A stretch of 64,000 nucleotides of DNA from contig NZ_FOMI01000001.1 in assembly GCF_900112595.1 (NCBI RefSeq), positions 248,001-312,000 on the forward strand, in the 5' to 3' direction. The DNA comes from Algibacter pectinivorans. GTDB taxonomy: Bacteria; Bacteroidota; Bacteroidia; Flavobacteriales; Flavobacteriaceae. The translations under genes and the position numbers were made by a program. The stretch's first letter is position 1. Every line of letters begins with the position of its first letter. Below the pieces are notes generated by a model. That model did no database searches, was not told where the DNA came from, and saw only the letters and a list, made by a program, of their open reading frames with translations. Shown piece by piece: positions 56,673 to 61,055 of the stretch.

Positions 56673-56681
56673 GTTGGCAGC
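56673..56681. repeat. Left inverted repeat flanking the HEPN-like gene
   Basis: GTTGGCAGC here is the exact reverse complement of GCTGCCAAC at 58040-58048, so the two bracket the HEPN-like gene. A similar pair brackets the PLD-like gene. Confidence 0.5.
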
Positions 56682-56702
56682 AACCTGAAAAAAAAAGACT
56701 GA

Positions 56703-58034
56703 ATGATAAATAAACATATTATAGATTTTAACGAAAACCTTATTGGACTTAGGGATTTTGTTGAATTAATTGACCCTTTTCTGAATGAAAAGCTTGAAGA
56801 ACATGACCAACATCTTCAGCCATTAATAATGTCTGCAATGATTAAAGAGCTTTTAAATGACGACAATGACATAGAACCTGAGGATAAGGAAAAATATACC
56901 GAATTTCAAGAAAAATTAACAAAAGACCTTGAAGCTAAATATTCTGAAATTCCTGAGGTAAAAATTGATAAAGAAGAAGATGGTGAGCATAAAAAATATG
57001 CTATAAAAATTGCAAACACAAATAGTGAAGTTTCAAAACATATGGACAATGTTGCTAAAAACAGAAGTCACATTGAGTTACTTTACACAAACTCTTTGAT
57101 ATCCTCACTAAGTTCAGTAGAATGGTTTTTCTCTCAACTACTTCATTTTTTTTACGATAAACATCCCGAATCTGCTGGTGTTCAAAAAAGAACAATGACT
57201 CTAGCTGATTTGAAAAATTTTGGTAGTATTGAAGATGCAGAAAAGTATTTAATTGATGTTAAAATCGATGAAATTTTAAGAGGAAACTTTGAAAGTTGGG
57301 TTAGTTTATTAAAGTCTGAATTATCTCTAGGACTTGGTTATCTCAATGAAATAATGGATGAATTAATTGAAGTTTACCAAAGAAGAAATTTATTTGTACA
57401 TAATGGTGGTACTGTAAATTCCATATATCTTTCAAAAGTTCATGAGACCCAAAGAAAAGGGATTTCATTGAACGACAAACTATCCGTTAACAAAGAATAC
57501 TTAGACAATGCCATTTGCAAACTTCAAAAAGCATTTATTCTAATTGGAGCAGAACTATGGAAAAAATTAAGTCCTGAAGATGAATCTAGAGGTGAAATTC
57601 TTGGCGATATCGTATATGAGAATCTACGACACTCAAGATGGGACATTTGTGAAGGATTATGTTATTTTTCACTTAAAGATGTGCAAACTCACCCAGTTGA
57701 CAAAGTAATCGCCCAAATTAACTATTGGTTGTGTAAAAAAGAAATAGGAGATTATAAATCAATCGAAAAAGAAATTAATAAAGCTGACTTTTCAGATAAA
57801 AAAGAAATCTTTCAATTAGGATTATATGCATTGCGTGGTGAAACTGATAAAATCTTAAAAATTTTGCCAATAGTACTTGAAACAAATCAGACCAATATTG
57901 AGAGAATAGAAGAATTTCCCATCTTAAGAGAATTCAGAGAGACTGAAGAGTACAAGAATTTCAAACAAGAATCAGAATTTTTTAAAGAAGATAGTAAAGA
58001 AGTTATAACACCAGAAGTAGTAGAAAAAGAATAA
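56703..58034 (+). CDS. HEPN-like protein of unknown function
   Basis: 443 residues, acidic, mostly helical, no signal peptide or membrane helix. The segment 125-250 has SSVEWFFSQLLHFFYDK and then YQRRNLFVHNGGTVNSIYL, where R228-x4-H233 preceded by R fits the Rx4-6H motif of HEPN ribonuclease domains with the usual N after R. N- and C-terminal parts show no recognised domain; the end (380-440) has weak repeats of helix pairs. Compared with the housekeeping genes it is lower in GC. It stands between short inverted repeats and beside an IS110 insertion and a PLD-like nuclease gene, which suggests transfer and a possible role in defence or toxin-type RNA cleavage. That is inference. Confidence 0.65.
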   Translation: MINKHIIDFNENLIGLRDFVELIDPFLNEKLEEHDQHLQPLIMSAMIKELLNDDNDIEPEDKEKYTEFQEKLTKDLEAKYSEIPEVKIDKEEDGEHKKYAIKIANTNSEVSKHMDNVAKNRSHIELLYTNSLISSLSSVEWFFSQLLHFFYDKHPESAGVQKRTMTLADLKNFGSIEDAEKYLIDVKIDEILRGNFESWVSLLKSELSLGLGYLNEIMDELIEVYQRRNLFVHNGGTVNSIYLSKVHETQRKGISLNDKLSVNKEYLDNAICKLQKAFILIGAELWKKLSPEDESRGEILGDIVYENLRHSRWDICEGLCYFSLKDVQTHPVDKVIAQINYWLCKKEIGDYKSIEKEINKADFSDKKEIFQLGLYALRGETDKILKILPIVLETNQTNIERIEEFPILREFRETEEYKNFKQESEFFKEDSKEVITPEVVEKE

Positions 58035-58039
58035 AGGCA

Positions 58040-58048
58040 GCTGCCAAC
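58040..58048. repeat. Right inverted repeat flanking the HEPN-like gene
   Basis: GCTGCCAAC, exact reverse complement of GTTGGCAGC at 56673-56681. The IS110 sequence begins shortly after it. Confidence 0.5.
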
Positions 58049-58076
58049 AAAGAACTGAGTTAAAAAACAAGTAACT

Positions 58077-59078
58077 TTAAGCTAATTTTGAAACAAAGTT
58101 TTCATCATAAGGCAATCCGCTTTTTGCAATGGCAAAAGCCTGTTTAAGCAACTTATTCGCTACTGCTATTAATGCTAACTTAGCACTCTTTCCTTTAGCT
58201 ACAATTCTATCAAATAAGGCTTTGCATGCTCGGTTATATTTATACGCAGAAAAGGCTGCTAAAAACACAAGATTTCTTAATTTCTTATTTCCTACTTTAC
58301 TAATTCTACTCCGCCCTCTTACACTGCTTCCAGATTCTCGAATCGTTGGTGTAATTCCAACATAACTACAAAGCTGTGCTGCACTTTCAAACTTTTTAAA
58401 ACCATCTTTAACAACGATTAAAAACAAGGCTGTTTTTAAACCTATTCCTGGTATGGTTTGCAATAAAGTTAGTTGTTCTTGCTGGTCTTGTTTTACTAAT
58501 TCTAATAAGCGTTTCTCTAATATTAAAATCTCGTTCTTTAAATGGTTTAAGTCTCGTTTTAAAGAGCGATAAACCGTTTTTGATGGGATTCCTAAGGTGT
58601 CTTCTCCATGAAGTTTGTTTTTTGTAGCTGTACTCTTTTTTACGTAACTATCCAATAACCTAAAGAGCTGTAAGCATTCTGCCTGTACATCTGTTAGAGC
58701 ATTATATAATGGAACATCATTAAAAAGACCATACTCACAAATAGATTTAGCATCACTCTTATCGGTCTTTACTTTTGCTAGTTTCATTTGAATAAAACGC
58801 TTTACTGACAATGGATTTACAACAGATACTAATACGCCATTTTTATATAAAAACTGCGCTAATCTGTAATGATAATACCCTGTAGCTTCCATGACTACCA
58901 AAGCATCTTTTGATAGACTTTTTAGTAGTTTTTTAAAACCCTGTTCATCATTCTTTAATTGATCATGTCCTGTGTCTTGATTATAAATATCAAACACAGA
59001 TTTACTAATGTCAATACCATAAATTTTTCTATCTTTAGTCATAACAACTTGAAATTTGGAAAGAACAACGCTACTCAT
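58077..59078 (-). CDS. IS110-family transposase (recombinase)
   Basis: 333 residues, intact. N-terminal RuvC-like DEDD domain: D23 in YGIDISK, E64 in VVMEATGYY, D106 and D109 in KTDKSDAK. C-terminal Tnp domain: TIPGIGLKTALFLI and SYVGITP with ESGSSVRGRSRISKVGN, the region with the catalytic serine. The frame is whole, so the element may be active. The start may be M13 (MTKDRKIYGID, at 59042) rather than the long form. Its target choice is expected to be guided by an RNA encoded upstream. Confidence 0.93.
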   Translation of the reverse strand: MSSVVLSKFQVVMTKDRKIYGIDISKSVFDIYNQDTGHDQLKNDEQGFKKLLKSLSKDALVVMEATGYYHYRLAQFLYKNGVLVSVVNPLSVKRFIQMKLAKVKTDKSDAKSICEYGLFNDVPLYNALTDVQAECLQLFRLLDSYVKKSTATKNKLHGEDTLGIPSKTVYRSLKRDLNHLKNEILILEKRLLELVKQDQQEQLTLLQTIPGIGLKTALFLIVVKDGFKKFESAAQLCSYVGITPTIRESGSSVRGRSRISKVGNKKLRNLVFLAAFSAYKYNRACKALFDRIVAKGKSAKLALIAVANKLLKQAFAIAKSGLPYDENFVSKLA

Positions 59079-59114
59079 ATTTCAACAACTTGAAAACGAG
59101 ATCTAGGTCTCACA

Positions 59115-59134
59115 CCTACCTGCCGGCAGGCAGG
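59115..59134. repeat. Palindrome, variant of the 5686-5705 repeat
   Basis: CCTACCTGCCGGCAGGCAGG, one base off the perfect 20-bp palindrome at 5686-5705. It lies between the transposase start and the candidate bridge RNA. Confidence 0.6.
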
Positions 59135-59156
59135 GAACTGAACGAAGTTTAAGTAG

Positions 59157-59230
59157 TAAAAGAGAGAGGATTATCAATGTTGTCGAAGTCTAACGCTTCA
59201 CCGTATATAGTAACCTTAATTCTCTCTTTT
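59157..59230 (-). ncRNA. Candidate IS110 bridge RNA
   Basis: On the minus strand AAAAGAGAGAATTA (59230-59217) pairs with TAATCCTCTCTCTTTT (59172-59157), enclosing about 44 bases that hold a small GAAG/CTTC hairpin (59199-59185) and unpaired loops. IS110-group elements encode, upstream of the recombinase, a structured bridge RNA whose internal loops pair with target and donor. Position, strand and long stem fit; the true ends and the loop assignment are not established. Confidence 0.55.
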
Positions 59231-59395
59231 GTTCTTTCTGATTATTAATTAAATTTAGTGATTTACAAACTTAAGACGTATATAAAAAATAGCGATTTAA
59301 TCGCTTAATCAAAACAAAATGAATAAATTAAAGGTCAGTTATAATCCGAAAAGTTAGTGTATAAAATCCGCTACTTTTCATATACAAGACCGTTG

Positions 59396-59403
59396 GTTGT
59401 GCT
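59396..59403. repeat. Left inverted repeat flanking the PLD-like gene
   Basis: GTTGTGCT, exact reverse complement of AGCACAAC at 60980-60987 on the far side of the gene. Confidence 0.45.
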
Positions 59404-59433
59404 TCATGTCCAAAAAACCCATAAACTAAACGA

Positions 59434-60135
59434 ATGATTGCAGAATTTATAGGACAAGGATTATTTGACGATACAGAGGAAAGTATCGGAAATCACGTAT
59501 GCTCAACTTTAAATAACTTAACATTTAAACAGATAACATTTTTTAATGCTTTTTTACGTTCAAAAGGACTTAAAGAATTAAAACCTTTTATAAAAAAAGC
59601 ACAGAAAAACGGAGCTAACTTTACATTCTTTATTGGTATAGATGAAAAAATAACATCAAAAGAGGCTCTCGAAATGCTTTTAGATTTAGGAATTGATAGT
59701 TATGTCTATTCTTCCAAACAATTTATTTACCACCCTAAAGTTTATGTGTTTGAAGGAGAAATTAGAAGTCGAATTATTACTGGCTCATCAAACCTTACTA
59801 AATCAGGATTATTTTATAATATAGAATCTTCAATATTACTTGACTTTACAAATGAAGATAAAGGCGGAAATAAAGTTTTAAATCAACTTAAAGACTATTT
59901 TTCACCTTTATTAGAATTTACAAGTGATAACCTTGAAAAGGTAACCAAAGAATATATTAATTATTTAGTTGAAGAATCTCTAATTTCAATTGAGAAATAT
60001 GAATCAGATGATGACTCTTTTTTAAAAACTCATGATAACACGAAAAAACGTTTTAAAAATCCAAAAATAGGAACACTTGGAAAAATAGAAATAACTGAAA
60101 GTGCTCGTCAATCAAAAAATATAAATTTAAAATAA
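59434..60135 (+). CDS. PLD-superfamily nuclease-like domain, N-terminal part of a frameshifted gene
   Basis: 233 residues. One HKD-like motif: H100-P-K102 in FIYHPKVYVF and G117-S-S-N120 in ITGSSNLTKSG, the half-site used by dimeric PLD nucleases such as those at the N-terminus of type III Res/DEAD helicases and NgoFVII-type endonucleases. The frame ends at TAA 60133-60135, but the following ORF continues in the -1 frame with KITEEYLEKWDG before its ATG, so the two appear to be one gene of about 510 residues split at an A-run (60114-60119). Low-GC like the neighbours. Confidence 0.7.
   Translation: MIAEFIGQGLFDDTEESIGNHVCSTLNNLTFKQITFFNAFLRSKGLKELKPFIKKAQKNGANFTFFIGIDEKITSKEALEMLLDLGIDSYVYSSKQFIYHPKVYVFEGEIRSRIITGSSNLTKSGLFYNIESSILLDFTNEDKGGNKVLNQLKDYFSPLLEFTSDNLEKVTKEYINYLVEESLISIEKYESDDDSFLKTHDNTKKRFKNPKIGTLGKIEITESARQSKNINLK
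60113..60120 (+). other. A-run frameshift site between the PLD and helicase-associated parts
   Basis: TCAAAAAAT: frame 0 reads TCA AAA AAT ATA..., which reaches TAA at 60133. Adding one A, or slipping back one base on A-AAA-AAT, reads TCA AAA AAA TAT AAA TTT AAA ATA ACA GAA, which joins the next ORF without a stop. Either a one-base deletion (mutation or sequencing error) or programmed -1 slippage. Confidence 0.6.
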
Positions 60136-60164
60136 CAGAAGAATATTTAGAAAAATGGGACGGA

Positions 60165-60965
60165 ATGTTTAAACGCATGAAAGCCTACAAAGAGGAATTT
60201 GGTCGCACAACAGTAAGTAAAAATCATGCTGACCAAACATTAATAGGTTGGTATTATAAACAAAAACTGATTTATAATGACCCAGAACTTGAGATGCCAA
60301 AAGAACATTTAGAAAAGTTAGAATCAATTGATTTTCATTTTGGAGACGGAAAAGATGAAAGAACTGATTTTATAAGAAAAAGATGGCTGAAATTATTGGA
60401 AAAAGCATTGAGACAAGGAGAAGAAATTTCACAAATTCATAGCTATATTTTTGAAGGAGAAAATTTAGGAACTTGGCTTCAAGAATCTAAAAAAGATATA
60501 GAAACAAGAGCTTTAATTGAAAAAGCAGGTTTTGACTATAATAAAAAAAGTAGAAGTCCTAAAAATTCAGCCATAAGATTTCTATCAAACCTTGAAGAAG
60601 ATTTAAATCCAAAAAAATCAAAATATCAAACTTTATTTAATTCAAGAATAATTCATAGAAAAGATAAAATACCAGATTATTTAATCAATGAAATAAATAA
60701 ATTGTGGAAACAGAAATTTAAAGAAGATAGAAGTTGGATAAAAAAGTCAAGAGTTAAAGATTATACAGAAGAATGGAAAAAATTTAGAAATAATAAATCT
60801 ATTAATCCAGAAGGAAAATGGTTTAAGCCAAAACCATACATGGGAAATATTTATGAATGGGTTTGGGGTAAAAGAAAGAATAAAAGTAAAATGGATTTAG
60901 TGATTGACAAGTTTAACAAAGAAGAGTTAAAAGAATTGAAAAATGAAGGATTTCCAATTGAATAG
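60165..60965 (+). CDS. Helicase-associated-like domain, C-terminal part of the same frameshifted gene
   Basis: 266 residues from its own ATG. The beginning (WDGMFKRMKAYKEEFGRTTVSKNHADQTLIGWYYKQ, given here as key residues W, M-K-A-Y, G-W) follows the pattern of the helicase-associated (HA) domain: a Trp-start helix, GRTTV turn and LGxW-like end. The rest is basic and helical (KKSKYQTLFNSRI, LNEINKLWKQKFKED) with more HA-like Trp repeats. There is no helicase core between the PLD and HA parts, so it looks like a compact nuclease-plus-nucleic-acid-binding protein. Whether it is still expressed depends on the frameshift. Confidence 0.6.
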   Translation: MFKRMKAYKEEFGRTTVSKNHADQTLIGWYYKQKLIYNDPELEMPKEHLEKLESIDFHFGDGKDERTDFIRKRWLKLLEKALRQGEEISQIHSYIFEGENLGTWLQESKKDIETRALIEKAGFDYNKKSRSPKNSAIRFLSNLEEDLNPKKSKYQTLFNSRIIHRKDKIPDYLINEINKLWKQKFKEDRSWIKKSRVKDYTEEWKKFRNNKSINPEGKWFKPKPYMGNIYEWVWGKRKNKSKMDLVIDKFNKEELKELKNEGFPIE

Positions 60966-60979
60966 TTAAAAAACACGAA

Positions 60980-61055
60980 AGCACAACATTGTATAAGCGC
61001 AATTAAGGCAGATTCGACTACGTCCGAATCCACTCGGAATTGCTAACGACTGTGC
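60980..61055. repeat. Nested imperfect palindrome resembling a folded cassette recombination site
   Basis: AGCACA (60980-60985) pairs with TGTGCT (61050-61055), CAATT (61000-61004) with AATTG (61038-61042), and GATTCG (61011-61016) with CGAATC (61024-61029), with unpaired bases between. This is the shape of an attC site, but the RYYYAAC/GTTRRRY boxes are not exact. It lies between two accessory genes, and its outer arm repeats the AGCACAAC repeat of the PLD-like gene. Confidence 0.45.

What the first reader, a model, noticed from the sequence alone, without database searches (positions are those of the whole stretch)
58055..59270. Complete IS110 element with a candidate bridge RNA next to a cassette boundary
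The transposase is intact (D23, E64, D106, D109) and the upstream region has a 14-bp stem enclosing loops, as expected for an IS110 bridge RNA. It landed just past an inverted cassette-like repeat; IS110 relatives of the IS1111-attC type target such sites. This may be a natural guide-RNA recombinase aimed at cassette boundaries.
Basis: partly seen in the sequence, partly recalled or inferred. Interest (0 to 1): 0.75.

Follow-up and report, generated by a model that had tools for sequence, protein, structure and literature searches.

The report
Guide-RNA transposon aimed at gene cassettes
A small jumping gene of marine flavobacteria carries a predicted guide RNA whose sequence matches the joints of integron-like gene-cassette arrays, and in related copies the guide tends to change in step with the joint it is inserted in.

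Summary
Confirmed and extended. The window holds a complete 1226-bp IS110-group element (58050-59275, minus strand) with an intact transposase and an upstream predicted bridge RNA whose helices covary (19 of 33 pairs changed on both sides somewhere). Its exact empty site is seen in an uninterrupted relative of the same cassette. Over 120 distinct insertions with 42 guide sequences, the left target guide matches its own flank at 6.7 of 8 positions; 0 of 5000 group-level shuffles reach this. Of 17 insertions with strongly different guides, 13 fit their own guide better than the usual one, 1 equally, 3 worse. The target is one end of an attC-like site: 57 of 99 insertions have the complement of their flanking 9-mer at the other cassette end (shuffled mean 2.1, maximum 8). 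The arrays look like little-described flavobacterial integrons with a Xer-like recombinase at their head. In the window copy a 20-nt palindrome splits the left donor guide, so that copy's activity is uncertain. New variant of a known kind; no bench evidence.

The parts
58050..59275 (-). complete IS110-group element, 1226 bp
   Evidence: homology ends and empty-site comparison
58077..59042 (-). IS110 transposase/recombinase (321 aa from the shared ATG; ORF open from 59078)
   Evidence: IS621 8wt6, E 2.2e-34; ISCro4 9t56, E 1.1e-33
59059..59238 (-). predicted bridge RNA core, bounded by outer helix 59231-59238 / 59059-59066
   Evidence: true RNA ends not determined
59158..59230 (-). target-binding loop with its stem (59222-59230 / 59158-59166)
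59200..59209 (-). left target guide UAUAUACGGU
   Evidence: 8 of 8 compared positions identical to the left target TATATACG; covariation
59185..59199 (-). hairpin between the two target guides
   Evidence: 4 pairs kept in all 27 sequences, 3 with compensatory changes
59175..59182 (-). right target guide CAACAUUG
   Evidence: first five nt are the complement of the right target TGTTG; variants
59071..59156 (-). donor-binding loop with its stem (CUACUU.../...GAGUAG)
   Evidence: helix 4: 4 of 5 pairs with changes on both sides; the inner helix 5 is weak, 61% of cells paired
59135..59142 (-). left donor guide UUCAGUUC (interrupted)
   Evidence: matches the element end CTCAGTTCTT; variants
59115..59134 (-). 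20-nt palindrome CCTGCCTGCCGGCAGGTAGG inserted in the left donor guide
   Evidence: not in the other copies parsed except a similar one in L055/L204 and a degenerate one in L002
59086..59096 (-). probable right donor guide UUUUCAAGUUG
   Evidence: complement of element start CTTAA with one mismatch; parallel changes in L195 and L199 read by eye
58040..58049 (-). right target flank TGTTGGCAGC (R''-like box of the cassette's attC-like site)
59276..59285 (-). left target flank TTATATACGT
56673..58049 (+). gene cassette (ORF 56703-58034) that received the element; ends GTTGGCAGC ... GCTGCCAAC are complementary
   Evidence: (row L001)
59276..59398 (+). remainder of the split attC-like site, ending in GTTGGTT
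59396..60987 (+). next cassette (GTTGTGCTT ... AAGCACAAC, read by eye), with a PLD-like ORF and an ORF with a sub-threshold helicase-associated domain

Best explanation
An autonomous IS110-group insertion sequence. The transposase, expected to be assembled with the bridge RNA made from its left end, brings the circular element to attC-like sites of flavobacterial cassette arrays. The left target guide reads ...TATAYACG on one side and the right target guide reads TGTTR on the other; the element joins between them, without duplicating or losing a base. The donor loop pairs with the element's own two ends. The insertion splits the attC-like site between its R'' box and the rest, separating a cassette from most of its recombination site. 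Shown by sequence: ends, empty site, RNA fold with covariation, guide-target covariation (strong for the left target guide; a few variants each for the other guides), cassette context. Inferred: RNA expression, catalysis, circular intermediate, effect on cassette movement.
For: protein; RNA; left guide: 120 distinct insertions, 0 of 5000 group shuffles as high; right flank TGTTR in 97 of 105; right-guide variants L121, L175 and L199/L200/L208 match their own targets; left donor guide equals the element end in the common form and in the variants ACAGTTCT, TTAGTTCT, TCAGATCT, TCAGTTCA; exact empty site; cassette arrays.
Against: The window copy's left donor guide is split by a 20-nt palindrome, so this copy may not move. 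Pairing is imperfect: 14 of 120 insertions match at 5 or fewer of 8 positions, and 3 of 17 insertions with strongly different guides (L142, L203, L211) lie at targets nearer to the usual sequence than to their own guide. Some right guides do not fit their flank (L196, L207), and LD ACAGTACT faces guide ACAGTTCT. No identical core dinucleotide is visible on both sides as in IS621. 42 of 99 insertions did not show the cassette-end 9-mer, some with over 2.3 kb of flank. The structure model was drawn on one of the aligned sequences, which favours it against the slid controls. All evidence is sequence comparison.
Confidence: 0.88

Rival explanations
1. The element recognises the folded attC-like site (a hairpin structure), with the protein reading shape, and the guide similarity reflects shared descent of linked sequences.
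For: The target is part of a large imperfect inverted repeat in the arrays printed, and related elements share both guide and host range.
Against: Guides and targets change together in unlike lineages: TTAACCG (L038), TCTACC (L034, L049), CAAACCCTT (L199, L208), TTAAGCAT with right guide AAACA facing TGTTT (L175), and, less fully (4-6 of 8), AACCGC (L193, L205, L212, L216). In L177 the element seems to sit about 10 nt from the usual point in what reads as the same kind of site, as its changed guides predict (by eye).
Confidence: 0.07
2. The element is of the kind described, but the window copy is decayed and its RNA no longer works; here it is a relic. (Compatible with the best explanation of the family.)
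For: Left donor guide split by a palindrome; a second, degenerate copy in the same genome carries an insertion at the same place.
Against: Transposase open with the conserved residues; target guides fit; the palindrome could form a hairpin that leaves both parts of the guide in place. L055/L204 has a similar insert at the same spot.
Confidence: 0.3
3. It is a member of the IS1111-attC group of integron-targeting elements.
For: Same kind of target (one end of attC sites), reported for ISKpn4 and ISPst6 (PMC11187229, passages read).
Against: The long non-coding region is upstream of tnp (197 nt to the longest ORF, 233 nt to the shared start) and the right end is 27 nt; IS1111 has the reverse (PMC11208160, passages read). 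NF033542 is a family model, so protein naming alone does not decide, and no phylogeny was made.
Confidence: 0.03

Closest known systems
IS621 / IS110 group with bridge RNA (PMC11208160)
   Same: DEDD plus C-terminal serine domain, long left end with a two-loop RNA, left and right target guides, donor guides matching the element ends
   Different: Target is an attC-like site of cassette arrays, not REP; no identical core dinucleotide seen at both junctions
IS1111-attC elements ISKpn4, ISPst6, ISPa25 with seekRNA (PMC11187229)
   Same: RNA-guided insertion at one end of integron attC sites
   Different: IS1111 group with RNA downstream of tnp; here IS110 group, RNA upstream, Flavobacteriaceae, another attC class
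ISCro4 (PDB 9t56)
   Same: transposase homologue, phmmer E 1.1e-33
   Different: its RNA and target were not compared here
Chromosomal integrons (IntI plus attC)
   Same: for the arrays: head-to-tail cassettes with complementary ends, recombinase gene at one end of the array
   Different: recombinase is Xer-like and below the IntI cut-off (173 of 265 bits); attC-like sites of another sequence class

Membership tests
IS110 group (IS110/IS621-like) | DEDD RuvC-like domain plus C-terminal Transposase_20 domain with conserved serine | tested here: met
IS110 group (IS110/IS621-like) | non-coding left end much longer than right end, with a two-loop bridge RNA | tested here: met
   LE 197-233 nt, RE 27 nt; predicted RNA
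IS110 group (IS110/IS621-like) | target and donor guides complementary to flanks and ends | tested here: met
   the right donor guide by eye only
IS110 group (IS110/IS621-like) | identical core dinucleotide at both junctions | tested here: inconclusive
   left N10 then C11 (113 of 122 distinct flanks begin CTTAAG), right T10 then T11 (107 of 109)
IS110 group (IS110/IS621-like) | circular intermediate and RNA-guided activity | not testable with these tools
   needs bench work
IS1111-attC group | non-coding RNA region downstream of tnp | tested here: not met
   right end is 27 nt
IS1111-attC group | long subterminal inverted repeats | not tested
   not searched for
IS1111-attC group | insertion at one end of attC sites | tested here: met
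   as attC-like sites:
Integron (for the arrays) | cassettes whose first bases are complementary to the R'' box of their own attC | tested here: met
   49 neighbouring pairs, mean 4.12 of 6 (22 perfect) against 2.24 shuffled, maximum 2.94; within-site control 2.52 over 63
Integron (for the arrays) | IntI integrase over the TIGR02249 cut-off | tested here: not met
   0 of 99 genomes over cut-off; recombinase beside the array 173 bits of 265

The most novel reading that the evidence does not exclude
A lineage of guide-RNA transposons has specialised on a family of integron-like cassette arrays in flavobacteria that standard integron models miss, and re-tunes its target guides as attC classes diverge between host lineages, so that guide sequences can be used to read which recombination site each lineage exploits.
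Probability: 0.6. Interest if true: 0.75.

Novelty: new variant of a known kind. Interest (0 to 1): 0.62.

Why it matters
It is a natural case of guide RNA and target changing together in an IS110-group element, with dozens of guide variants and exact targets, which is a ready set for learning the pairing rules of bridge RNAs and for finding new recombinases. The targets point to large cassette arrays in Flavobacteriaceae; the passages I saw of a standard survey name one complete integron in Bacteroidetes, Salinibacter ruber (PMC9024848; its counts of integrase-free clusters for that phylum were not in those passages). That RNA-guided insertion sequences of both the IS110 and IS1111 groups use attC-type sites may mean that cassette joints are favoured landing places.

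Tried and rejected
Rfam: no family matched the element at gathering thresholds (1 match in the window, a tRNA). Folding a truncated stretch gave no signal; the full stretch did. IS1111 membership rejected on anatomy. A core of CT at both ends was considered and rejected, because the empty sites seen lack it. A motif test for the far half of attC found 51 of 117 insertions against 54 of 1440 control windows; I replaced it by the complementary-end test, since the motif fits one attC class only. The first left-donor-guide count used a loose anchor and misread some rows; the stricter count is, which counts places, not distinct insertions. Of 157 profile hits, 149 places were kept. Dropped from these: L002, L148, L195, five more places without a parsed guide (L153, L165 twice, L178, L213) and four with under 14 nt of left flank (L050, L142 at 1, L176, L177), then repeats of one insertion; 120 remained. 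In one search only insertions with at least 1200 nt of right flank and a clear right end were used (99). One search looked for the Salinimicrobium target in four genomes and found single near matches in three. Structure prediction was not run, since the PDB match to IS621 made it unnecessary.

Full report
OBSERVATION. The element runs from 58050 to 59275 on the minus strand (1226 bp). The transposase has PF01548 and PF02371, passes NF033542 'IS110 family RNA-guided transposase' (216 bits, cut-off 140) and matches the solved IS621 and ISCro4 transposases. The right non-coding end is 27 nt and the left end 197-233 nt, as in the IS110 group and unlike IS1111 (groups as described in PMC11208160, passages read).

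COPIES. A scan of named genomes kept the best 80 of 318 confirmed loci; the titles name Winogradskyella, Maribacter, Tenacibaculum, Polaribacter, Aequorivita, Cellulophaga, Psychroflexus and others. A stricter protein search found 16 of 395 genomes of the order (E at most 1e-60). The home genome also holds fragments.

ENDS AND EMPTY SITE. Of 122 distinct left flanks, 113 are followed by CTTAAG; of 109 distinct right ends, 103 read CAGTTCTT (which kept only clear right ends). The same cassette, 78% identical, is present without the element in G107 (L243), the one strong match among 397 genomes apart from our own. There the sequence reads GCTGCCAACA-ACGTGTATAA; in the window it reads GCTGCCAACA, element, ACGTATATAA. 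So insertion is exact, with no duplication and no loss.

BRIDGE RNA. RNAalifold on 28 left ends gave 22 pairs, 13 with compensatory changes. For an explicit six-helix model on 27 sequences, 93.4% of cells pair (slid controls 44-55%), and 19 of 33 pairs have a change on both sides in at least one sequence (shuffled mean 8.1, 0 of 500 as high). The model was drawn on L010, one of the 27, which by itself favours it over the slid versions. The weakest helix (helix 5) pairs in only 61% of cells. The model is an outer helix enclosing a target loop (left guide, hairpin, right guide) and a donor loop (left donor guide, hairpin, right donor guide).

GUIDES AND TARGETS. For 120 distinct insertions with 42 left-guide 12-mers, the left guide matches its own left flank at a mean of 6.73 of 8 positions: 36 insertions at 8, 40 at 7, 30 at 6 and 14 at 5 or fewer. 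Averaged over 41 guide groups it is 6.6; shuffling guides among groups gives 5.2 (maximum 5.77), 0 of 5000 as high. Related groups are not independent, so this is not a probability. Of the 17 insertions whose guide departs from TATAYACG at three or more places, 13 fit their own guide better than TATAYACG, 1 equally (L121) and 3 worse (L142, L203, L211); own guides were allowed the best of three offsets there. The clearest cases are L038 TTAACCG, L034/L049 TCTACC, L199/L208 CAAACCCTT and L175 TTAAGCAT; L193/L205/L212/L216 fit at 4-6 of 8. The window copy matches 8 of 8. The right flank is TGTTR in 97 of 105 distinct insertions. The right guide is CAACA in most copies; where it differs the target often differs too (L121 GAACU with AGTTA; L175 AAACA with TGTTT; L199/L208 UAACA with TGTTA, joint read one base over), but L196 and L207 do not fit (by eye). 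The left donor guide equals the element end in the common form (105 places) and in the variants ACAGTTCT (7), TTAGTTCT (2), TCAGATCT (1) and TCAGTTCA (1); the other 15 places, the window copy among them, fit at 6 or 7 of 8. The probable right donor guide is the complement of the element start, with parallel changes in L195 and L199 (read by eye, not counted).

JUNCTION. Position 10 of the left flank varies, position 11 is the element's C; on the right the bases are T10 and T11. T10 is commoner in filled than in empty TATAYAC sites (46 of 69 against 25 of 72, p 2e-4), as expected if identity with the donor's T10 helps; but the empty sites come from four genomes and were not freed of repeats, so this is weak. 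I found no identical dinucleotide at both junctions, so the core is unresolved. By type, of the 113 left flanks followed by CTTAAG, 69 are TATAYACNN, 25 a form with a shorter spacer and 19 other.

WHAT THE TARGET IS. The 15-mer TTATAYACNNTGTTR occurs in 19 of 19 genomes examined, 1 to 59 times, 256 in all, against 22 for the reversed control; in G350 (1 against 4) and G215 (4 against 3) it is no commoner than the control. In the arrays held it recurs on one strand as the 3' end of an imperfect inverted repeat, at distances of about 0.5-4 kb (pairs beyond 4.5 kb were left out). The first bases of a cassette are complementary to the box at its other end: 49 neighbouring pairs average 4.12 of 6, 22 of them perfect, against 2.24 when shuffled and 2.52 for the two ends of one site. 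This is the hallmark of integron cassettes (general knowledge, not from a call). The same test on the insertions themselves: 57 of 99 have the complement of their own 9-mer downstream, against a shuffled mean of 2.1 and maximum of 8. The window cassette shows it (GTTGGCAGC 56673, GCTGCCAAC 58040). In L199, L200 and L205 the left flanks read as other attC-like classes that the changed guides fit (by eye).

ARRAY RECOMBINASE. A 368-aa tyrosine recombinase lies beside the array end on G000:C10, next to a gene that reads as secA. 15 of 16 genomes have a match at E at most 1e-40. Relatives lie 1-3 kb from the last listed site in G168, G121 and G294, within about 1-6 kb of a site or element copy in G021, G024, G060, G215 and G227, and within about 8-15 kb in G061, G108, G236 and G350 (positions); second copies in G168 and G236 lie apart, and G113 and G157 were not checked. 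From gene direction this is the head of the array where I could judge it. It scores below the IntI cut-off, and none of 99 genomes has a match over that cut-off.

PUBLISHED. RNA-guided insertion at attC is known for IS1111 elements ISKpn4 and ISPst6 (PMC11187229, passages). My searches listed nothing that I could recognise as an IS110-group element with this target, nor integron arrays of Flavobacteriaceae (open-licence papers only, listings). Integrons are listed for Bacteroidota (PMC8618304, passage), and one complete integron, Salinibacter ruber, is named (PMC9024848, passages). Tetu and Holmes 2008 and Post and Hall 2009 are known to me only as references.

CAVEAT ON THIS COPY. A 20-nt palindrome, whose 12-nt core occurs at 20 places in the genome, splits the left donor guide. 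A similar palindrome is at the same spot in L055/L204 and a degenerate one in L002.

VERDICT. The reading of the first stage is supported, with the group corrected.

Noticed in passing
L097:2166-3272 (G000:C10), L231-L238: Integron-like cassette arrays with a Xer-like recombinase of about 370 aa beside them, below all IntI cut-offs; up to 59 sites per genome (G157).
   Followed up: partly
window 59115-59134; L055, L204; L002: A short GC-rich palindrome (CCTGCCGGCAGG core at 20 places in the genome) sits at the same point of the donor guide in unlike copies, as if the guide were its target.
   Followed up: partly
L055 (right target guide): A second palindrome, ATCCCGATGCTTCGGGAT, splits the right target guide of this copy, which nevertheless sits at a normal target.
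   Followed up: no
L175, L176, L177 (Salinimicrobium terrae): Both target guides changed; in L177 the right flank TGTTTTTATACGTTGTTACC suggests insertion about 10 nt from the usual point inside the same kind of site.
   Followed up: partly
window 59434-60965: The next cassette carries a PLD-like ORF and a separate ORF with a sub-threshold helicase-associated domain (27.9 of 28.4 bits); possibly a split gene.
   Followed up: no
L007:1501-1540 (G000:C21): A 25-mer of the element's right end occurs inside a small hairpin without the rest of the element.
   Followed up: no
L243 (G107): The same cassette gene is joined to an attC-like site with a different interior in another genus, as expected if cassettes and sites recombine.
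   Followed up: partly
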